From Conexibacter arvalis (GTDB lineage: Bacteria; Actinomycetota; Thermoleophilia; Solirubrobacterales; Solirubrobacteraceae), in NCBI RefSeq assembly GCF_014199525.1, contig NZ_JACHNU010000006.1:124001-188000 (forward strand): a DNA stretch of 64,000 bases. Reading direction: 5' to 3'. A program made the translations under genes and the position numbers. Position 1 is the first letter of the stretch, and each line of letters begins with the position of its first letter. Below, piece after piece: positions 29,117-42,071 of the stretch. The notes under the pieces are model-generated. The model had not been told where the DNA came from, searched no databases, and saw nothing but the letters and a program-made list of their open reading frames with translations.

Positions 29117-29126
29117 CCGCGCGCCG

Positions 29127-29220
29127 GCGCCCCGCGCCCCGCGCCCCGCGCCCCGCGCCCCGCGCCCCGCGCCCCGCGCCCCGCGCCCCGCGCCCCGCGC
29201 CCCGCGCCCCGCGCCCCGCG
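29127..29220. repeat. 13.4 copies of heptanucleotide GCGCCCC
   Basis: Uninterrupted perfect array of 13 GCGCCCC units plus GCG (94 bp), between the fprA stop and the MmpL promoter. The unit length is not a multiple of three and the array is non-coding, so slippage would change promoter spacing rather than a reading frame. Confidence 0.97.
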
Positions 29221-29295: not shown

Positions 29296-31476
29296 ATCTC
29301 GACCGCCCGCTCCCTGCTGACGCTCGCCGCCGGTCACCGCGCGAAGTTCGCGGTCGTCGCGGTCTGGGTCGCGCTCGTCGCGGCCTTCGGCTCGTTCGCC
29401 GGCAAGCTGACCGACGTCGAGGAGAACGATCCCGTCTCGTTCCTGCCGGGCTCGGCCGAGTCGGTCCAGGCACTCGAGGCGGTCGACCGCTTCCCCTCCG
29501 GCGACCGGGCGCAGGCGGTGATCGTCTACCACCGCGACGGCGGGCTGACCGCCGCCGACCGTGCGGCGATCGCCCGCGACCGCGCCTCGCTCAACGCCGA
29601 TCCGCCGCCGGCGACGGCGCCGATCCCGCCGGCGATCCCCTCCAGAGACGGCCGCGCCGCCCTGCTGATCGCCTCGATCGACACGAGCGACCGCGTCGAC
29701 GAGGACCTGCTGATAGGCGCGACCGACGAGCTGCGCGACCGTGTCGCGGAGGGCGTGCCGGCCGGCCTGGTCGTGAAGGTCAGCGGCCCGGCCGGCTTCT
29801 CGACCGACGCCGTCAAGGTCTTCGAGCAGATCAACGGCACGCTGCTGCTGGCGACCGCGTCGCTCGTCTTCGTGCTGCTGATCCTGATCTACCGCAGCCC
29901 GATCTTCTGGGCGATCCCGCTCGTCACCGTGCTGTTCGCCGAGGTGCTGTCGCGCGGGATCGGCTATTGGCTGGCGAAGGCCGGCGTGACGATCAACGGC
30001 CAGACCTCGGGCGTCCTGTCGGTGCTCGTCTTCGGCGTCGGGACCGACTACGCGCTGCTGCTGGTCGCCCGCTATCGCGAGGAGCTGCGCCGCCACGAGG
30101 ACAAGCACGAGGCGGCCGCGATCGCGCTGCGCCGCGCCGGCCCCGCCGTCTTCGCCTCCGGCATGACGGTGATCGCCGCGCTGCTGTGCCTGTCGCTCGC
30201 CGAGGTCAACGGGACCGCGGGCCTCGGCCCGGTCGGCGCCTTCGGCGTCGCGCTCGCGATGCTCGCGATGCTGACGCTGCTGCCGGCGCTGCTGGCGATC
30301 ACCGGCCGGCGCGCCTTCTGGCCGTTCGTCCCCCACTTCGGCGACGCCGGCACCGACGAGACGCATGGCCTCTGGCGCAGGCTCGGCGAGCGGATCCGGC
30401 CGCGCCCGCGACGGGTCTGGATCGGCACGACCGTCGCGCTGCTCGTGCTCTGCCTGGGCCTGACGCAGATGAACTCCGACCTCACGAGCGGCAACGCCTT
30501 CCGCGGCGACGTCGAGTCGGTCGAGGGCCAGGAGCTGATCGCGCAGTCGTTCCCGGCCGGCGCCAACGCGCCGACCAACGTGATCGTGCCGCCCGGAGGC
30601 GGCGGCCCGGCGGCCGGCGCGGCGCGGGTCGCGGCGGTCGGAAGAGCGGCCGCCGGCGTCGACGGGGTCGCCGCCGTGCTGCCGGTCGAGCGCGACCCCG
30701 ACGAGGGGACGCTGCTGCACGTGACGCTGGAGGCCGAGCCCTACAGCGAGCGGGCGTTCGACGTGATCGAGCCGCTGCGCGGCGCCGTCAAGGCCGCCGG
30801 CGGCGACGCGGTGCTCGTCGGCGGGCCCACGGCCGAGGAGCGCGACCTGCGCGTGTCGACCGCGCGCGACAACCGCCTGATCGTCCCGATCGTGCTCGTC
30901 GTCGTCTTCCTGATCCTCGCCGCCGTGCTGCGCGCGCTGCTGCTGCCGCTGCTCCTGATGGCGACGGTGATCCTCTCCTACGCCGCCGCGCTGGGGATCG
31001 GCGCCTTCTTCTTCATGGAGGTGTTCGGCTTCGACGGGATCGACCCGGCGCTGCCGCTGTTCGCGTTCATCTTCCTGGTCGCGCTCGGGGTCGACTACAA
31101 CATCTTCCTGATGGCGCGGGTGCGCGAGGAGGCGCACGCCCACGGGACGCGGCTCGGCGTCGTGCGCGGGCTGGCGGTCACCGGCGCGGTCATCACCTCG
31201 GCCGGGATCGTGCTCGCCGGCACCTTCTCGACGCTGGCGGTGCTGCCGCTCGTCGTGCTGACCGAGATCGGCTTCACGATCGCGATCGGCGTCCTGCTCG
31301 ACACCTTCGTCGTGCGCTCGATCCTCGTGCCGGCGCTGGCGCTCGACGTCGGCGACCGCGTCTGGTGGCCGTCGGCGCTCGCTCACCGCGCCGCGCGGCC
31401 CGACGACGAGCGCGAGGAGGGTCCGGAGCCGGCCGCGGCCGAGACGGCCGGCTCAGGCTCCGGCGGCGCGGCCTAG
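29296..31476 (+). CDS. MmpL-family RND transporter
   Basis: About 726 residues with 12 predicted membrane helices. Helix 1 is KFAVVAVWVALVAAFGSF (~16-33), then an extracytoplasmic domain, helices 2-6 (LLLATASLVFVLLILIYRSP, FGVGTDYALLLVARYREEL, GMTVIAALLCLSL), a second external domain and helices 8-12 (FIFLVALGVDYNIFLMARV). The paired D-Y motifs (GTDYALL, GVDYNIF) are the MmpL proton relay. The first ATG/GTG in frame is GTG 29518, which would remove helix 1. Homology and the leaderless TAGCAT point to an ATC start at 29296; CTG 29311 is the alternative. Likely exports lipids or hydrophobic compounds. It ends in a CTAG overlap with glnA. Confidence 0.9.
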   Translation: MSTARSLLTLAAGHRAKFAVVAVWVALVAAFGSFAGKLTDVEENDPVSFLPGSAESVQALEAVDRFPSGDRAQAVIVYHRDGGLTAADRAAIARDRASLNADPPPATAPIPPAIPSRDGRAALLIASIDTSDRVDEDLLIGATDELRDRVAEGVPAGLVVKVSGPAGFSTDAVKVFEQINGTLLLATASLVFVLLILIYRSPIFWAIPLVTVLFAEVLSRGIGYWLAKAGVTINGQTSGVLSVLVFGVGTDYALLLVARYREELRRHEDKHEAAAIALRRAGPAVFASGMTVIAALLCLSLAEVNGTAGLGPVGAFGVALAMLAMLTLLPALLAITGRRAFWPFVPHFGDAGTDETHGLWRRLGERIRPRPRRVWIGTTVALLVLCLGLTQMNSDLTSGNAFRGDVESVEGQELIAQSFPAGANAPTNVIVPPGGGGPAAGAARVAAVGRAAAGVDGVAAVLPVERDPDEGTLLHVTLEAEPYSERAFDVIEPLRGAVKAAGGDAVLVGGPTAEERDLRVSTARDNRLIVPIVLVVVFLILAAVLRALLLPLLLMATVILSYAAALGIGAFFFMEVFGFDGIDPALPLFAFIFLVALGVDYNIFLMARVREEAHAHGTRLGVVRGLAVTGAVITSAGIVLAGTFSTLAVLPLVVLTEIGFTIAIGVLLDTFVVRSILVPALALDVGDRVWWPSALAHRAARPDDEREEGPEPAAAETAGSGSGGAA

Positions 31477-32816
31477 AGGATCGGCAGGTAGCGGTCGAGC
31501 TCCCACTGCGTGACCTGCACGCGGTAGTCGTCCCACTCCTGCCGCTTGATCTCGACGAAGCGGTTGAACATGTGCTCGCCGAGCGTGCGCAGCACCAGCT
31601 CGGAGTCGGCCGTCAGCTCGATCGCCTCGCCGAGCGTCTCGGGCAGCTGCTCGATGCCGAGCCGGCGCCGCTCGTCGGGCGCGAGGTGGTAGAGGTTCTT
31701 CTCCATCGGCTCCGGCAGCTCGTAGCCGTGCTCGATCCCCTCCAGGCCGGCCTGCAGCAGCACCGCGAAGGTCAGGTACGGATTGCAGGCGGGGTCGGGG
31801 CAGCGCAGCTCCATCCGCGTCGTCTGCTCCTTGCCGGGGTGGTACATCGGCACGCGCACGAGCGCCGAGCGGTTGCGGCGCGACCAGGCGAGGTAGGTCG
31901 GCGCCTCGTAGCCGGGGACGAGCCGCTTGTAGGAGTTGACCCACTGGGCGAAGATCGCGCTCATCTCGCGCGAGTGGCGCAGCTGGCCGGCGATGAACGC
32001 CTTGCCGACGTCGGACAGGTAGTACTGGTCGTTGGCGTCGTAGAAGGCGTTCTTGCCGTCCTTGAAGAGCGACAGGTGGGTGTGCATGCCCGAGCCGTTC
32101 TCGCCGAACAGCGGCTTCGGCATGAAGCTCGCGTGGAGGCCGTACTTGCGCGCGTACTCCTTGACCGTGATGCGGTAGGTCATGCAGTCGTCGGCCATCT
32201 TCAGCGCCGAGGCGTAGCGCATGTCGATCTCGTGCTGGGAGGGGCCGACCTCGTGGTGGGTGTACTCGACGTGGATGCCGAGCTGCTCGAGCGCGAGAAC
32301 CGTCTCGCGGCGCAGGTCGGAGCCGGCGTCGAGCGTCGTCAGGTCGAAGTAGCCGCCCTCGTCGAGCGGCGTCGGGTCCTTCGTGTCCTTGAAGTAGAAG
32401 AACTCCAGCTCGGGGCCGACCATGAAGTCGTCGAAGCCGAGCGCCTTCGCGCGCTCGAGCGCGCGCCGCAGGACGTGGCGGGGATCGCCCTCGTACGGGG
32501 TCTGCTCCGGGGTCTGGATGTCGCAGAACATGCGCGCGACGCCCTGCTCCTCCGGCCGCCACGGAAGCACGGCGAAGGTGCTCGCGTCGGGCATCGCGAT
32601 CATGTCCGACTCCTCGACCGCATTGAAGCCGGTGATCGAGGAGCCGTCGAAGCCCATCCCGCCCTCGAAGGCGTCCGGCAGCTCGCTGGAGTTGATCGAG
32701 AACGCCTTCAGCTGTCCCAGGATGTCGGTGAACCAGAGCCGGATGAAGCGGATGTCGCGTTCTTGGACGAGACGCAGCACGTCGTCGGGCGTCAGCGGCG
32801 TGGCGGCGTCGGTCAT
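31473..32816 (-). CDS. glnA: glutamine synthetase type I
   Basis: 447 residues: glutamate + NH3 + ATP gives glutamine. Landmarks: GFDGSSITGF (beta-grasp latch), MVGPELEFFYF and GPSQHEIDMRY (metal-ligand Glu/His), NGSGMHTHLSLF (glutamate/ATP site), RVPMYHPGKEQTTRMELRCPDPACNPYL (read in pieces, active-site Arg), and C-terminal MEKNLYHLAPDERRRLGI. A Tyr occurs at the adenylylation-loop position, but the surrounding NLYHL differs from the classic NLYDLPP; length and loop fit the GSI-alpha branch. ATG chosen at 32816 with AGGAG eight bases upstream. The stop shares CTAG with the MmpL stop. Confidence 0.96.
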   Translation of the reverse strand: MTDAATPLTPDDVLRLVQERDIRFIRLWFTDILGQLKAFSINSSELPDAFEGGMGFDGSSITGFNAVEESDMIAMPDASTFAVLPWRPEEQGVARMFCDIQTPEQTPYEGDPRHVLRRALERAKALGFDDFMVGPELEFFYFKDTKDPTPLDEGGYFDLTTLDAGSDLRRETVLALEQLGIHVEYTHHEVGPSQHEIDMRYASALKMADDCMTYRITVKEYARKYGLHASFMPKPLFGENGSGMHTHLSLFKDGKNAFYDANDQYYLSDVGKAFIAGQLRHSREMSAIFAQWVNSYKRLVPGYEAPTYLAWSRRNRSALVRVPMYHPGKEQTTRMELRCPDPACNPYLTFAVLLQAGLEGIEHGYELPEPMEKNLYHLAPDERRRLGIEQLPETLGEAIELTADSELVLRTLGEHMFNRFVEIKRQEWDDYRVQVTQWELDRYLPIL

Positions 32817-32863: not shown

Positions 32864-33277
32864 TTACTCCGCGCGCTCGTCGCCACAGGGGGGCAGCCAG
32901 CGCTGCGCCCACGCCTCCAGCGCGCCGAGCGCCGGCTCCAGCTCGCGGCCCATCGGGGTCAGCGCGTACTCGACCCGCGGCGGGCGCCCCGGCAGCTCCG
33001 TGCGCACGACGACGCCGCGCGCCTCCAGCTCCTTCATCCGCTCCGACAGCAGCCGGTCCGACAGCTGCGGGACGGCGTGGGCGATCTCGGTGAAGCGCAG
33101 CGGCGAGCGGTGCATCAGCACCCGCACGATCGCGCCGGTCCAGCGCTTGCCGAGGAACTCGATCGCCTCGTGGTACTGAGGGCAGCAGGCGGCCGCGGGC
33201 ACGGCGGCCGCCGGCTCGGCAGCCGCCGCGCTCGGCGCACGGCGCGCCGCGGATCGCTGCTCGTGCTCGACCGCCAT
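32864..33277 (-). CDS. HxlR-family transcriptional regulator
   Basis: 137 residues. Ala-rich N-terminal extension (~30 residues), then the winged helix-turn-helix: CCPQYHEAIEFLGKRWTGAI, MHRSPLRFTEIAHAVPQLSD, RLLSERMKELEARGVV, and the wing RVEYALTPMGREL. The Cys pair at the domain start is a common place for redox sensing in this family. It lies 32 bases downstream of the AhpD-like gene on the same strand, a typical pairing of HxlR with redox/electrophile genes. An inverted repeat (33996-34014) upstream of the pair could be its operator. Confidence 0.93.
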   Translation of the reverse strand: MAVEHEQRSAARRAPSAAAAEPAAAVPAAACCPQYHEAIEFLGKRWTGAIVRVLMHRSPLRFTEIAHAVPQLSDRLLSERMKELEARGVVVRTELPGRPPRVEYALTPMGRELEPALGALEAWAQRWLPPCGDERAE

Positions 33278-33309: not shown

Positions 33310-33870
33310 TCAGGCGGCGGCGAGCGTGCGCGTGCCCTCGACCGAGCCGTCGACCGGCACCTCGCCGGCGACGTTCACCATCGCCGCCAGCGACTCCAGC
33401 GCGACGACGGCGATCGCCTCGAGGATCTCCTCGTCTCCCCAGCCGGCCTCGCGAGCCGCCTCGTGCAGGTGCATCGGCGGCCTGCCCTCGACGACGAGCG
33501 CCCGCAGGTACTGGAGCAGCGCCTCCTCGCGCGGGTCTGCGGAGGAGAACTCGCGTGCGAGCGCGACCTCGTCGAGGCCCAGCCCGGCGGCGCGGGCGGT
33601 GCGCGCATGCATCGCGACGCCCGGCTCCGAGCCGTGGTGCTCGGCGACCGCGAGCGCGATCCGCTCCTGTGTCGCCGGGTCGAGATGGCCGTGGCGCAGC
33701 TCTGAGCGGAAGCGGGCGTAGCCGCGCAGGGCGGCCGGCGAGCCGGCCAGCGCGCCGACGAAGTTGGGCAGCTGCCCGCCGGTGGCGAGCGCGCCCTTGA
33801 GGATCGGGACCGAGGCTTCCGGGGCGGTCAGCTCGTCGTGGATCTGGAACCGGCTCATCGGCGTCTTCAT
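33310..33870 (-). CDS. carboxymuconolactone decarboxylase/AhpD-like protein without CxxC
   Basis: 186 residues, all-helical CMD fold: GQLPNFVGALAGSPAALRGYARFRSEL, then ERIALAVAEHHGSEPGVAMHARTARAAGLGLDEVALAREFSS (read in pieces). AhpD-like members normally have GC-x2-C-x3-H at this point; here it is GSEPGVAMH, so both redox Cys are absent while the His remains. It therefore should not act as a classic peroxidase. ATG at 33870 or four codons later. First gene of a two-gene unit with hxlR. Confidence 0.85.
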   Translation of the reverse strand: MKTPMSRFQIHDELTAPEASVPILKGALATGGQLPNFVGALAGSPAALRGYARFRSELRHGHLDPATQERIALAVAEHHGSEPGVAMHARTARAAGLGLDEVALAREFSSADPREEALLQYLRALVVEGRPPMHLHEAAREAGWGDEEILEAIAVVALESLAAMVNVAGEVPVDGSVEGTRTLAAA

Positions 33871-34050: not shown

Positions 34051-34314
34051 TCAGGCGCCCGAGGCGGTGATGATCGCGACGGCGATCAGGAAGACGCCCA
34101 TCAGCACCGCCCACATCGCGGCGCGGTCGGGGCGGCTGCCGACGAGGCGGTCGCTCGCGCTGCGGGGGCGATGACGCCGGGCGCGGGTCTCGTACTCGTA
34201 GTCGTGGCGGCGCGTCGGGGGCGGCGCGACCTGGCCCCTGATGACGATCGTACGGCGCTCGCCCTGCTGTGAGTCGGCTTGGCCGCGTCGCGGCGGAGCC
34301 TGTGCGGTTGGCAT
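34051..34314 (-). CDS. 87-residue membrane protein controlled by a c-di-AMP riboswitch
   Basis: A hydrophilic, strongly basic N-terminal part (~1-65, with RRTIVIRGQVAPPPTRR and ETRARRHRPRSASDR) precedes one C-terminal helix, AAMWAVLMGVFLIAVAIITA (~65-84). This looks like a tail-anchored or single-span cytoplasm-facing protein. No signal peptide and no known domain. GAGGA lies about 10 bases before the ATG, immediately downstream of a ydaO-type aptamer (34337-34465). Known targets of this riboswitch are cell-wall hydrolases, K+/osmolyte transport and related genes, so a role in envelope or turgor control is inferred only from the switch. Confidence 0.75.
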   Translation of the reverse strand: MPTAQAPPRRGQADSQQGERRTIVIRGQVAPPPTRRHDYEYETRARRHRPRSASDRLVGSRPDRAAMWAVLMGVFLIAVAIITASGA

Positions 34315-34336
34315 CTGGTTCGATCCTCTTTCTCGG

Positions 34337-34465
34337 GCTTACGGGGTTAGCTGACGGGCTCGCGCCGAAAGAGCGGCGCTACGCGCACCTCGCGCGATTC
34401 GCCCCGATGTCGTGGGTCCCCCGCTTCCCGCGCGGCAGACGGGAATTCAGCGGCGTGACGTGGCG
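34337..34465 (-). ncRNA. cyclic di-AMP riboswitch (ydaO/yuaA class)
   Basis: On the minus strand the leader contains, in order, the conserved blocks of the ydaO aptamer: CGCCGCTGAATTCCCG near the 5' side, GGGACCCA (34420-34413), TCGGGGCGAATCG (around 34396-34407), a variable stem (GCGCCGCTCTTTCGGCGC), and the 3' block CAGCTAACCCCGTAAGC (34353-34337). Order and spacing match actinobacterial members. It ends 22 bases before the ATG of the 87-residue membrane protein, on whose mRNA it must lie. No separate terminator hairpin with U-run follows, so control of the ribosome site or of a GC-only terminator is possible. Confidence 0.85.
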
Positions 34466-34509: not shown

Positions 34510-35973
34510 TTATGGAGAGCGGCGGTCGGAAGGCCGTGCCGGGTAGTGCCCGAGCTTCTTCGCGGGCGGCAGCAGGTCGGTGAACGACGGCGGGAAGCTG
34601 CCGCCCGGCTCCATGTGCCAGACGGAGCTGATCGCGTCGCCGCGGGGCGCTCCGACGACGGTCCCGTCGGCGAAGAGCGCGAGCACGTAGTCGCTGTCGC
34701 GGCGGTATGCCCGCTGCGGGAGGCCGGCCTGCTCGCAGAGCTCGCGCAGCGTCACCGCGCCGATGCCTATCCGCGGTCTGCCGCTCGGTCTCGCCGGCAG
34801 CTCGGCGCCGCGGCAGACCGCTGCGGGCGCGACGGGGCCGCGGCCGCGGACGACCGGGACGGCCCGGTCGACGACCTCGCCCGCGCCGTCGCGCAGGACC
34901 GCCTCCCCCGGGTAGCGGCTCGCGAGCGATCCGCGCAGCACCGTGGCGGCGGCGTTGCCCGTGACGGTGACCCGCACGGTGCGCTCCGGCGAGCGGCTCG
35001 GACCGTACCGCTCCGCCGGGTAGCGGTATGCGACGGAGGCGACCCCGTCCGGGACCAGCTGCACCTGGAGCGAGCGCATCCGGCCGCCGTCGTCGCGGTC
35101 GTCGCGGTCGTCGTGGTCGCCGGGCCCGGCGCGCAGGCCCCACGCGACGTACCAGGCGCGCCCGTCGCCCAGAGCCGTCCGGGTCACGCCGTACGGGTAC
35201 TGGACCGGCCGGTCGCGGGCGTCGGTGAGGATCACGAGCGCGGCCGTCGGGGACGCAGCCGACCGGTCGGCTGCTGCCGTCGCGCCGGCCGCCTCGCCGT
35301 CGTCGGAGGCGGAATCGCCGCCGGTGCCCGCCGTGCCCGCCGCCGGCTGCACAGGCGCGAGGTACACGCGGTGGCCGCCGGCCGCGGGGATCGCGGCGAC
35401 GCGGCGGACGGCGGCCGCCTCGACGGTGCCCCGATATGGCGGGTCCGCCCTCCGCGCCGCCGCTCGCGCCGCAGCGACCACGCGCGGCGGGGCGTCGCCG
35501 GCGCGCTGGTCGCGTCGCAGCACGCCGAGCAGCGCGGGCAGCGTGCCCGGCCGGTCGCGCGCGGCGTGCTCCTCCGGCGGAGCGCCGCCGCCCCACAGCG
35601 CGGCGACCGCCGCGATCGCGACGAGCGCGACGAGGCCGGTCGCGGTCGCGACCCGCGTGCGGGCCGGGCGGCCGGTCGCGCGGGCGCGAGCGGGGCGGGC
35701 GCGGGTGGCGCGCGCGGCGGCGGTGCGGGCGGCGCGGGCGGCGGCGGTGCGAGCGCGGGTGGCACGCGCGGCGGCGGTGCGGGCGGCGCGGGCGGCGGCG
35801 GTGCGAGCGCGGGTGGCACGCGCGGTCGCGCGGACGCCGGCGGTGCCGGAGTCGGAGGCCGTGGGTTCGTGCGTCGCGTGACCGCAGGGAGCGTGGAGCC
35901 GCTCGCGCGTGGCGGCGGGGCGCTCGACCGCGTCCAGCAGGTGGTGCTCGATACGCTCGAAGTAGCCGCTCAT
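34510..35973 (-). CDS. membrane protein co-encoded with ECF sigma factor (putative anti-sigma / CU044_5270-like)
   Basis: 487 residues. Cytosolic N terminus (MSGYFERIEHHLLDAVERP) with a H-x2-C-x-H-x2-H cluster at ~28-35, which could bind metal as in zinc anti-sigma domains. An Arg/Ala repeat region (~50-110, built on an 18-residue repeat) follows, then a membrane helix VATATGLVALVAIAAVAALW (~114-133) and a ~350-residue extracytoplasmic part with no recognised enzyme motif. The ATG overlaps the sigma factor stop (ATGA), so the two are translationally coupled. By position it is the sigma factor's regulator; direct homology to RskA/ZAS is not visible. Confidence 0.7.
   Translation of the reverse strand: MSGYFERIEHHLLDAVERPAATRERLHAPCGHATHEPTASDSGTAGVRATARATRARTAAARAARTAAARATRARTAAARAARTAAARATRARPARARATGRPARTRVATATGLVALVAIAAVAALWGGGAPPEEHAARDRPGTLPALLGVLRRDQRAGDAPPRVVAAARAAARRADPPYRGTVEAAAVRRVAAIPAAGGHRVYLAPVQPAAGTAGTGGDSASDDGEAAGATAAADRSAASPTAALVILTDARDRPVQYPYGVTRTALGDGRAWYVAWGLRAGPGDHDDRDDRDDGGRMRSLQVQLVPDGVASVAYRYPAERYGPSRSPERTVRVTVTGNAAATVLRGSLASRYPGEAVLRDGAGEVVDRAVPVVRGRGPVAPAAVCRGAELPARPSGRPRIGIGAVTLRELCEQAGLPQRAYRRDSDYVLALFADGTVVGAPRGDAISSVWHMEPGGSFPPSFTDLLPPAKKLGHYPARPSDRRSP
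35701..35827. repeat. 54-bp in-frame tandem repeat (2.3 copies)
   Basis: Units 35701-35754 and 35755-35808 differ by one base, followed by a partial third. They encode 18-residue Ala/Arg units (ARTAAARAARTAAARATR) just on the cytosolic side of the membrane helix of the sigma partner. Confidence 0.9.
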
Positions 35974-36545
35974 CGTCGCTCCGTGGTCGTCTGGGTGCGC
36001 AGCCACGCGAGAGCGCGGCTGACGCGCTGGCGCACCGCGGCCTCGGAGCTGCCCTGCTCGCGCGCGATCTCCGCGTAGTCGCGCTCGTCGATCACGCGGG
36101 CTCGCAGTGCCGCCCGCTGCTGCTCGGGCAGCTCGTCGAGCAGCGCGAGCAGCCGTCCGTCGTGGGCGGCGAGCTCGTCGACGCGGTCGAGGTCGTCCTC
36201 CGCGATCGCCTCGCGCGGGATGCCGAGCCGCCGCCGGGCCCGGTCCTGCGCGCGCCCGCGGCGGCGCGACTCGCGCGCCTTGTTGCGCGCGATCCCGCAC
36301 AGCCACGGCAATGCGGTCGGATGCTCGGGGCGGTAGGCGTCGGCGGCCAGCAGCACCGTCGCGAAGACCTCCGCCGCGAGGTCGGCAGCGAGCTCGCGGT
36401 CGCGCGTCTCGCGCAGCAGTGCGGCGAGGACCGCGCCGAGGTGGCGACGGTAGAAGGCCGAGAAGGCGGCGCGGTCTCCCCCGGCCGCCGCCGCCAGCAG
36501 CTGCGCGTCGTCGCGTCGGTCGTTCGTCCCCATCACCACATACAT
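35970..36545 (-). CDS. ECF RNA polymerase sigma factor
   Basis: 191 residues with both ECF regions. Sigma-2 lies at ~15-85 (AFSAFYRRHLGAVLAALLRE, DLAAEVFATVLLAADAYRPE, ALPWLCGIARNKARESRRR with the -10-recognition helix). Sigma-4 lies at ~125-180 (LALLDELPEQQRAALRARVI, DERDYAEIAREQGSSEAAVRQRVSRAL). ATG at 36545; an internal ATG four codons later is an alternative. The promoter side carries a 40-bp perfect palindrome (36578-36617), an unusual control element for an ECF gene. It overlaps the membrane-protein gene by four bases, the standard sigma/anti-sigma order. Confidence 0.93.
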   Translation of the reverse strand: MYVVMGTNDRRDDAQLLAAAAGGDRAAFSAFYRRHLGAVLAALLRETRDRELAADLAAEVFATVLLAADAYRPEHPTALPWLCGIARNKARESRRRGRAQDRARRRLGIPREAIAEDDLDRVDELAAHDGRLLALLDELPEQQRAALRARVIDERDYAEIAREQGSSEAAVRQRVSRALAWLRTQTTTERR

Positions 36546-36634: not shown

Positions 36635-36900
36635 GGCGCGGCAGTCGAGATGCGCGGGCGCAGTGGCTGCGCGTGCGGCGCGGCGGCGACATGCGGGGCA
36701 CGCGGTGGTGAGATGCGCGGCGCGCGGTGGATGAGTGCGCGCGGCGCGGCGGCGACATGCGCGGCACGCGGTGGTGAGATGCGCGACCCGCGGTGGATGA
36801 GTGCGCGCGGCGCGGCGGCGAAAAGTGCGGCACGCGGTGGTGAGATGCGCGACCCGCGGTGGATGAGTGCACGCGGCGCGGCGGAGACATGCGCGGCTGA
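36635..36900. repeat. 66-bp tandem repeat array (about four copies)
   Basis: Repeat phases at 36635 (diverged), 36701, 36767 and 36833, each opening with CGCGGTGGTGAGATGCGCG in the clear copies, with a few substitutions. It fills the gap between the palindrome and the DksA-like gene. The 66-bp unit stays open in several frames on both strands (22-residue repeats), but I see no ribosome site or conserved product, so I treat it as non-coding. Confidence 0.85.
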
Positions 36901-36947: not shown

Positions 36948-37295
36948 TCAGCCGCGGCGGTCGCGGGCGGCCTGCTCCTCGACGGTGCGCTCGGCCCACG
37001 GGATCGCTTCGAGGCGGGCGTCGGGGATCGGCGCGCCGCTCTCGATCGAGCGGCCGTAGCTGCCGTCCTCGATCCGCCGCTCGGCGCGCTCGATCGCGGC
37101 CAGCTCCGCGCGCAGCCGCTCGGCGATCCCCTCGTCACGCTCGCGCTCGAAGGTCTCGGTGCCGACGTCGCCCAGGTGCTGGTCGTAGTGCGCCAGCTCT
37201 TCGGCTTGGCCGTCGCCTTCCGCGAGAGCGGCGAGATCGCGCTCGACGCGGGCGCGCTCGCGCGCCAGCAGCTCACGGGCATGCGCGGTGTCCAT
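36948..37295 (-). CDS. DksA/TraR-like protein lacking the zinc-finger cysteines
   Basis: 115 residues: coiled-coil N-terminal half (LLARERARVERDLAALAEGD ... ERLRAELAAIERAERRIEDG) and the DksA C-terminal block GSYGRSIESGAPIPDARLEAIPWAERTVEEQ (read in pieces). In zinc-containing homologues this reads YGxCExCGxPI...PxAxxCVxCQ; here all four Cys positions are Ser, Ser or other residues. The glycine and the PIPxARLEAxPWA core are kept, so the fold is recognisable. Some bacteria carry Cys-less DksA paralogues that act when zinc is scarce. Might bind the RNA polymerase secondary channel; function otherwise unknown. Confidence 0.85.
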   Translation of the reverse strand: MDTAHARELLARERARVERDLAALAEGDGQAEELAHYDQHLGDVGTETFERERDEGIAERLRAELAAIERAERRIEDGSYGRSIESGAPIPDARLEAIPWAERTVEEQAARDRRG

Positions 37296-37310
37296 GGCCT
37301 GGTGCTACCC

Positions 37311-37434
37311 GCGCGGACGCGCCCGCTACCGGAGGCCGCGGCCGGCGGTCGCGGCGACGAGCTGCTCGCGCGGACGGCCCGCTACCGGAAGGGCTGCGGC
37401 GACGGGCTGTTCGCGCGGACGCGCCCGCTACCGG
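37311..37434. repeat. three spaced copies of GCGCGGACGCGCCCGCTACCGG
   Basis: Near-identical ~22-bp elements start at 37311, 37368 (one base shorter) and 37413 between the cytochrome and DksA-like genes, with related GGTCGCGGCGACG spacers. Downstream of the DksA-like promoter region; role unknown. Confidence 0.6.
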
Positions 37435-37435
37435 G

Positions 37436-37933
37436 TCAGCGGCCGGCGGTCGCGGCGACGAAGGCGGCGACGGCTTCGGCCTGGGAGCCTTCGAGCAGGC
37501 GGGCGGGCATCGTGCCGCCGCCGCGCTGGCGCCCTCTGACGATCGCGTCGTAGGTCAGCTCGGCCGGCGGTCTGAGCACGTCGAGGCTCGGGCCGACCTG
37601 GCCGGAGGCTCTGGCGGCCGCGAGCGTGTGGCAGTTGGCGCAGTTCGCGCCGAACAGCTCGCGGCCCTCTCTCTCCTGCTGGGTGAGCTGGACCGTCTGG
37701 CCGTTTATGTGGGCGTCCGCGCTGTCGCTGTTGCCGATGCCGAGCAGCACCGGGACCGCGACCCCGACCGCGATGTAGAAGACCGAGAAGCCGATCAGCG
37801 CGGTGCGGTTCCCGGCGCGGCTCTGCGACTGCAGCGTCGCGCGCATGCCGCGCGGTCCGCCTCGCAGCGCGAGCAGGAAAAGCACCAGTCCGACGATGAC
37901 CCAGAATGCGATGAACGCCGCCGTTGCGAGCAT
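37436..37933 (-). CDS. membrane-anchored c-type cytochrome
   Basis: 165 residues. Two membrane helices (AAFIAFWVIVGLVLFLLAL, ~5-23, and GFSVFYIAVGVAVPVLLGI, ~49-67) precede a class I cytochrome c domain: haem motif CANCHTL (~98-104) and likely distal Met in GGTMPARLLEGSQ. Helices plus haem domain outside the membrane fit an electron carrier of the bc/oxidase chain. A paralogous haem domain with the same FGxNCANCHTLA core is at 43841. No oxidase or bc1 genes are in the window. AGA is used for several Arg residues. Confidence 0.9.
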   Translation of the reverse strand: MLATAAFIAFWVIVGLVLFLLALRGGPRGMRATLQSQSRAGNRTALIGFSVFYIAVGVAVPVLLGIGNSDSADAHINGQTVQLTQQEREGRELFGANCANCHTLAAARASGQVGPSLDVLRPPAELTYDAIVRGRQRGGGTMPARLLEGSQAEAVAAFVAATAGR

Positions 37934-38022
37934 GGAAAGCGACCCTATCCGCTCCGCACCACGGAATGGAAGGGTGAACTGTCACGTCGGCGACCACCGG
38001 CACGGCGGCCGGCGGCGGCCGG

Positions 38023-41991
<3,969 letters not shown>

Positions 41992-42071
41992 ATGTTCGCA
42001 TATGGGGCGGATCGAATGACGGGCGGGGCTCGGGGAGCGCGACTCCGACGCCTCGTCCGACAGACGCGCGC

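What the first reader, a model, noticed from the sequence alone, without database searches (positions are those of the whole stretch)
34051..34465. c-di-AMP riboswitch controlling an undescribed 87-residue basic membrane protein
The ydaO-class aptamer is recognisable block by block (GGGACCCA, GGGGCGAATC, CAGCTAACCCCGTAAGC) on the minus strand, and the only gene downstream within 22 bases is a small protein with a basic N terminus and a single C-terminal helix. Known targets of this switch are wall hydrolases and K+/osmolyte systems. A dedicated small membrane protein under c-di-AMP control would be a new class of effector, perhaps tethering to RNA, DNA or an envelope enzyme.
Basis: partly seen in the sequence, partly recalled or inferred. 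Interest (0 to 1): 0.75.

Follow-up and report, generated by a model that had tools for sequence, protein, structure and literature searches.

The report
Riboswitch-controlled anchor missing its enzyme
A known type of RNA switch that senses the signal molecule c-di-AMP sits in front of a gene for a small membrane protein; relatives show that this protein is the leftover membrane anchor of a cell-wall-cutting enzyme, kept under the same switch in dozens of related bacteria after the enzyme part was lost.

Summary
The minus strand carries a full c-di-AMP riboswitch (RF00379, window 34321-34462, 83.8 bits against a gathering score of 38). An 87-codon ORF (34051-34314) starts 22 nt after its core. 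The ORF is a real gene: all seven same-genus genomes have it (dN/dS 0.2-0.6), and relatives occur in 32 genera of the order. The riboswitch lies directly upstream in 67 of 76 complete cases. No Pfam, NCBIfam, PHROG or PDB relative was found.

The interpretation needs correcting. The gene sits at a conserved site (dnaE2 - cytochrome - switch+gene - AhpD - HxlR - GlnA). At that same site, seven family-f1 relatives and most of family f3 carry riboswitch + membrane anchor + RlpA-type lytic-transglycosylase domain. The window protein is the same cytoplasmic tail and membrane helix without the enzyme. It is therefore an enzyme-less offshoot of a known target class, not an unrelated new effector. All nine other riboswitches found in this genome precede wall-hydrolase-type genes.

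The aptamer's pseudoknot strand is also the Shine-Dalgarno sequence, so c-di-AMP most likely represses translation (inferred). What the bare anchor does is unknown; I favour docking or competing in wall-hydrolase complexes.

The parts
34321..34462 (-). c-di-AMP (ydaO/yuaA) riboswitch aptamer, RF00379
   Evidence: cmscan 83.8 bits, full length
34367..34373 (-). CUCUUUC in the hairpin loop: 5' strand of the pseudoknot, i.e. anti-Shine-Dalgarno
   Evidence: complementary to 34326-34332; 64/93 riboswitches of the order have 7 or more such pairs against 8.8 expected from shuffled tails
34326..34332 (-). GAAAGAG: 3' strand of the pseudoknot, overlapping the Shine-Dalgarno sequence AAAGAGG (34325-34331)
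   Evidence: sequence
34051..34314 (-). 87-codon gene for an enzyme-less membrane anchor protein
   Evidence: ORF; homologs in 32 genera; purifying selection
34234..34257 (-). conserved cytoplasmic motif RRTxxIxG (residues 20-27)
   Evidence: alignment A1, T22 invariant, R20/I25/G27 90% or more
34123..34134 (-). RPDR motif (residues 61-64) at the start of the membrane helix
   Evidence: D63 invariant, P62/R64 90% or more; also present in enzyme-bearing f3 proteins of G019 and G011
34057..34131 (-). single transmembrane helix (residues 62-86), inferred N-in/C-out
   Evidence: hydropathy, AlphaFold2; orientation from fusion of secreted wall domains after the same helix
31473..33870 (-). conserved downstream neighbours: AhpD-like (33310-33870), HxlR-like regulator (32864-33277), glutamine-synthetase-like (31473-32816); names read from sequence
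   Evidence: synteny by tblastn in nearly all homologous loci
36948..42000 (-). conserved upstream neighbours: DksA/TraR-like (36948-37295), cytochrome-c-like (37436-37933), dnaE2-like polymerase (38023 to about 42000); names read from sequence
   Evidence: synteny by tblastn

Best explanation
A c-di-AMP OFF-riboswitch controls translation of a small N-in/C-out membrane protein that is the reduced descendant of a membrane-anchored, RlpA-type peptidoglycan lytic transglycosylase. The enzyme and peptidoglycan-binding domains were lost, while the cytoplasmic tail, the membrane helix and the riboswitch were kept. Shown by computation: aptamer identity, the conserved riboswitch-gene pairing, positional orthology with enzyme-bearing forms, selection on the short gene, and the pairing between aptamer loop and Shine-Dalgarno sequence. 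Inferred: with c-di-AMP bound, the pseudoknot holds the Shine-Dalgarno sequence and translation falls, together with the wall hydrolases under the same switch. Inferred, weaker: the retained tail and helix still dock to the partner that once placed the enzyme, so the bare anchor recruits, competes with or tunes the remaining wall hydrolases.
For: Aptamer. Conserved pairing: 67/76 complete homologs, in 30 genera, have the riboswitch, usually 12-31 nt before the start. Same locus with and without enzyme: dnaE2-cytochrome-[gene]-AhpD-HxlR-GlnA. Enzyme-bearing forms in G150, G009, G109, G129, G141, G192 and G157; Pfam confirms PG_binding_1 + DPBB_1 'Lytic transglycolase' in the two submitted, G150 and G009. 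In family f3, 14 of 18 GlnA loci examined are riboswitch + RlpA-type enzyme, and in G019 and G011 it carries the same RPDRxALWAV anchor. In the domain tree, non-syntenic paralogs separate from all syntenic copies (85/86 support), and the G150/G157 copies group with G011/G019 (85/86), favouring an ancestral enzyme with repeated loss. Own-genome regulon: seven strong riboswitches precede M23, NlpC/P60-like, PG-binding or transglycosylase-like proteins; both DPBB genes also have riboswitch cores upstream. A DisA-type cyclase gene (PF02457) is present. Selection: dN/dS 0.2-0.6. Switch: loop/SD complementarity, no terminator-like site, and a C. glutamicum ydaO-type switch reported to repress translation, with the same RBS-pseudoknot idea proposed there (PMC9960051).
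Against: Parsimony alone does not fix the direction: on the GlnA tree the two states need five changes and many branches are weak, so repeated gain of the enzyme is not excluded. Permuting tails among sequences does not show covariation, because both strands are nearly invariant; support rests on the shuffled-tail null and a few alternative pairings. Nine relatives keep the gene without a detectable riboswitch, so c-di-AMP control is not obligatory. No evidence bears directly on what the bare anchor does.
Confidence: 0.68

Rival explanations
1. The short anchor protein is the ancestral form and wall-enzyme domains were fused onto it several times.
For: Enzyme-bearing forms in family f1 are scattered (genera g3, g4, g10, g22) among anchor-only ones, and five changes are needed on the GlnA tree. 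Many riboswitch-controlled DPBB paralogs exist as possible donors.
Against: The same domain order after the same helix at the same locus would have to arise repeatedly. DPBB domains of the locus separate from paralogs (85/86) and join family f1 and f3 copies (85/86).
Confidence: 0.22
2. A decaying relic: the enzyme was lost and riboswitch and anchor persist only because they have not yet been deleted.
For: The protein is a truncated version of a larger one; the N-terminal part before RRTxxIxG is variable in length and sequence.
Against: Conserved start, Shine-Dalgarno, motif and helix across 30 genera with riboswitch; dN/dS 0.2-0.6 in genus; open frames in all complete copies.
Confidence: 0.07
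3. The riboswitch really serves the downstream genes (AhpD, HxlR, GlnA) and the small ORF is only a leader peptide.
For: Those genes lie downstream on the same strand in families f1, f2 and the window.
Against: In family f3 the AhpD-like gene is on the opposite strand while the riboswitch and its gene persist. The small gene is conserved as protein. A switch acting on this Shine-Dalgarno would affect the first gene only, as reported for C. glutamicum (PMC9960051).
Confidence: 0.06
4. One reading: an independently evolved class of small c-di-AMP effector that tethers to RNA, DNA or an envelope enzyme.
For: Basic tail and no known family.
Against: Anchor homology and positional orthology with RlpA-type enzymes; basic residues before a membrane helix are ordinary for N-in topology. 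The envelope-enzyme part of the idea remains open.
Confidence: 0.1

Closest known systems
ydaO/yuaA c-di-AMP riboswitch, RF00379
   Same: Scores 83.8 bits over the whole model. Conserved blocks and the loop/3' tail complementarity match the crystal-structure construct printed in PMC5393176 (CUCCUUCG with CGAAGGAG there, CUCUUUC with GAAAGAG here).
   Different: The 3' pseudoknot strand coincides with the Shine-Dalgarno sequence and no terminator is seen, suggesting translational rather than the B. subtilis transcriptional control.
C. glutamicum nlpC c-di-AMP riboswitch (PMC9960051)
   Same: Actinobacterial, terminator-less, reported to lower translation; the authors propose sequestration of the RBS by a pseudoknot; wall-related target.
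   Different: Its target is an NlpC/P60 peptidase; here the target has no enzymatic domain.
Riboswitch-controlled RlpA-type (PG_binding_1 + DPBB_1) proteins at the same locus in relatives (e.g. G009, G150, G019, G011)
   Same: Same locus and riboswitch, and the same kind of membrane anchor (RPDRxAxWAV in most).
   Different: The window protein stops right after the helix and has no peptidoglycan-binding or DPBB domain.

Membership tests
c-di-AMP riboswitch (RF00379) | covariance-model score above gathering threshold, full length | tested here: met
   83.8 vs 38 bits, positions 1-134
c-di-AMP riboswitch (RF00379) | loop/3'-tail pseudoknot | tested here: met
   7-bp CUCUUUC/GAAAGAG; 64/93 in the order vs 8.8 expected
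c-di-AMP riboswitch (RF00379) | binds c-di-AMP and changes expression | not testable with these tools
   needs in-line probing and reporters; a DisA-domain cyclase gene is present
RlpA-type lytic transglycosylase | double-psi beta-barrel catalytic domain (DPBB_1) | tested here: not met
   87-aa protein has no Pfam hit and no DPBB remnant was found in its flanks; positional orthologs do have it
Solirubrobacterales RRTVxIxG-RPDR anchor family (defined here) | RRTVxIxG motif, RPDRxAxWAV helix, and locus dnaE2-cytochrome-...-AhpD-HxlR-GlnA | tested here: met
Solirubrobacterales RRTVxIxG-RPDR anchor family (defined here) | restricted to the order | tested here: met
   Class and phylum scans give nothing below E 1e-4 outside the order; very divergent members could be missed

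The most novel reading that the evidence does not exclude
Loss of the enzyme turned a wall hydrolase into a small regulatory membrane protein: under c-di-AMP control the bare anchor competes for, or recruits, the partner that positions riboswitch-controlled hydrolases, giving a protein-level tuner of the c-di-AMP wall regulon.
Probability: 0.35. Interest if true: 0.72.

Novelty: new variant of a known kind. Interest (0 to 1): 0.52.

Why it matters
Actinobacterial c-di-AMP riboswitches have been described almost only in front of wall-lytic enzymes and related wall genes. A conserved gene under the same switch that has shed its enzyme but kept anchor and switch in dozens of genera suggests that the non-catalytic part of such a protein is itself worth regulating. 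It gives a natural comparison (same locus, with and without enzyme) for asking what positions wall hydrolases and why c-di-AMP controls them. The overlap of aptamer pseudoknot and Shine-Dalgarno sequence across the order is comparative support for the translational mechanism proposed in C. glutamicum.

Tried and rejected
MAFFT columns for the pseudoknot tail were out of register (pairing 54-91%), so a register-free test was used. Permuting tails between sequences was not significant. Energy folding was not above shuffles. No promoter-like or terminator-like site was found. Considered and dropped: a K+/osmolyte target (no such gene adjacent), RNA/DNA tether (no support), Pfam or NCBIfam weak hits such as CbtB, DUF131 and CrgA (one to three members, E above 0.01). 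AlphaFold2 gives only a helix and a disordered tail, so no fold search was made. Literature: no held paper combines the terms c-di-AMP, riboswitch and Thermoleophilia, or c-di-AMP riboswitch and RlpA, or Conexibacter and riboswitch.

Full report
Observation. The window holds exactly one Rfam match at gathering threshold: RF00379, 34462-34321 on the minus strand, 83.8 bits, complete model. The ORF 34314-34051 (-) starts 22 nt after the last conserved core base, with an AAAGAGG Shine-Dalgarno sequence at 34331-34325.

Is the small gene real? All seven genomes of the genus that were searched (the window's own included) encode it, at 81-87 aa; the six others are 65-83% identical to it, with the start 17-23 nt after the riboswitch core. 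Pairwise dN/dS is 0.2-0.6, and variable columns concentrate at third positions (59, against 37 and 26). Named genus members found by a separate scan are Conexibacter sp. CPCC 206217 and CPCC 205762. A profile of 42 relatives matches strongly only inside the order, in families f1, f2 and f4, more weakly in f3, and nothing below E 1e-4 outside it. No Pfam, NCBIfam, PHROG or PDB relative was found.

What is conserved. The family has a variable N-terminal part, often with a WWADVEHLRE-like start in other genera, then RRTVxIxG, a basic proline-rich stretch, RPDRxAxWAVLLG and one membrane helix. AlphaFold2 sees only the helix 62-86 with high confidence. Of 76 homologs with a complete 5' end, 67 have the riboswitch directly upstream, in 30 genera; nine do not.

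The key finding is positional orthology with wall enzymes. tblastn of the window's neighbours shows dnaE2-like, cytochrome-like, (DksA-like), gene, AhpD-like, HxlR-like and GlnA-like genes in this order around nearly all homologs (gene names are my reading of the sequences, not profile-tested). At that same place G150, G009, G109, G129, G141, G192 and G157 have the riboswitch and the same anchor followed by further extracellular domains. Pfam calls these PG_binding_1 plus DPBB_1 'Lytic transglycolase' in the two I submitted. In family f3, 14 of 18 GlnA loci examined have riboswitch + RlpA-type enzyme, in G019 and G011 with the RPDRxALWAV anchor. Secreted wall domains after the helix also imply an N-in/C-out topology.

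Direction of change. On a GlnA tree the enzyme-bearing and enzyme-less states need at least five changes. A DPBB-domain tree separates 19 non-syntenic paralogs from all copies at this locus (85/86), and groups the f1 copies G150/G157 with the f3 copies G011/G019 (85/86). I therefore prefer an ancestral enzyme with repeated loss, but support is moderate.

Regulon. The genome has eight RF00379 hits above threshold and one weak hit. The seven other strong switches precede M23 peptidases, NlpC/P60 or PG-binding proteins (the L005 protein was assigned by eye, having no Pfam hit) and a transglycosylase-like protein. Both DPBB_1 genes of the genome also lie behind riboswitch cores, one of them the weak hit and the other not listed by the search. 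So nine of ten riboswitches precede wall-hydrolase-type genes and the tenth precedes the bare anchor. A DisA-domain cyclase gene is present.

Mechanism of the switch. The hairpin-loop sequence CUCUUUC (34373-34367) pairs with GAAAGAG (34332-34326), which overlaps the Shine-Dalgarno sequence. In 93 riboswitches of the order, 64 have 7 or more consecutive pairs between loop and tail, against 8.8 on average (maximum 16) with shuffled tails. Alternative pairings such as GCUUCUC/GAGAAGC and GCCCUUU/AAGGGGC occur. The crystallised ydaO RNA has the equivalent CUCCUUCG/CGAAGGAG by its printed sequence (PMC5393176). No terminator-like site lies between aptamer and gene. In C. glutamicum a terminator-less switch of this class is reported to repress translation, and the authors propose the same kind of RBS pseudoknot (PMC9960051). 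I infer a translational OFF switch here.

Function of the anchor. This is not shown. Conservation of the cytoplasmic RRTVxIxG motif and of helix residues, together with the loss of the catalytic part, suggests that the retained part carries a docking function. Whether it recruits, blocks or replaces hydrolases is open.

Verdict. Real, conserved and, as far as these libraries and papers show, undescribed as a gene family, under a textbook riboswitch class; a new variant of a known kind rather than a new class of effector.

Noticed in passing
window 34510-36545 (-): A sigma-factor-like gene (35970-36545) and a following, probably anti-sigma-like, gene lie between the DksA-like gene and the riboswitch here; in G087, G202 and G182 the DksA-like gene ends within about 240-375 bp of the riboswitch gene, so this looks like an insertion specific to this genome.
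   Followed up: partly
G000 C4 (L174) and C7 (L175): Two RlpA/DPBB_1 genes of this genome lie behind c-di-AMP riboswitch cores; the L174 switch was not listed by the covariance-model search (it has a long insert in one arm) and the L175 switch scored below threshold.
   Followed up: yes
window 36671-36897 and 38951-39134: Tandem arrays inside or beside coding frames: a 66-bp unit x 3.4 (92% matches) and a 45-bp unit x 4.2 (93%), the latter inside the dnaE2-like frame.
   Followed up: no
window 29117-29220: A 7-bp unit CCGCGCC repeated 14.7 times (96% matches) just past the 3' end of a ferredoxin-NADP-reductase-like frame.
   Followed up: no
whole order (201 genomes): Every genome of the order that was searched has at least one c-di-AMP riboswitch, often 5-10, a heavy use of this class.
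   Followed up: no
L120, L121, L125 (genus g17): Riboswitches of this genus have lost both the CUCUUUC loop and the GAAAGAG tail while keeping the core, suggesting a different expression platform.
   Followed up: no
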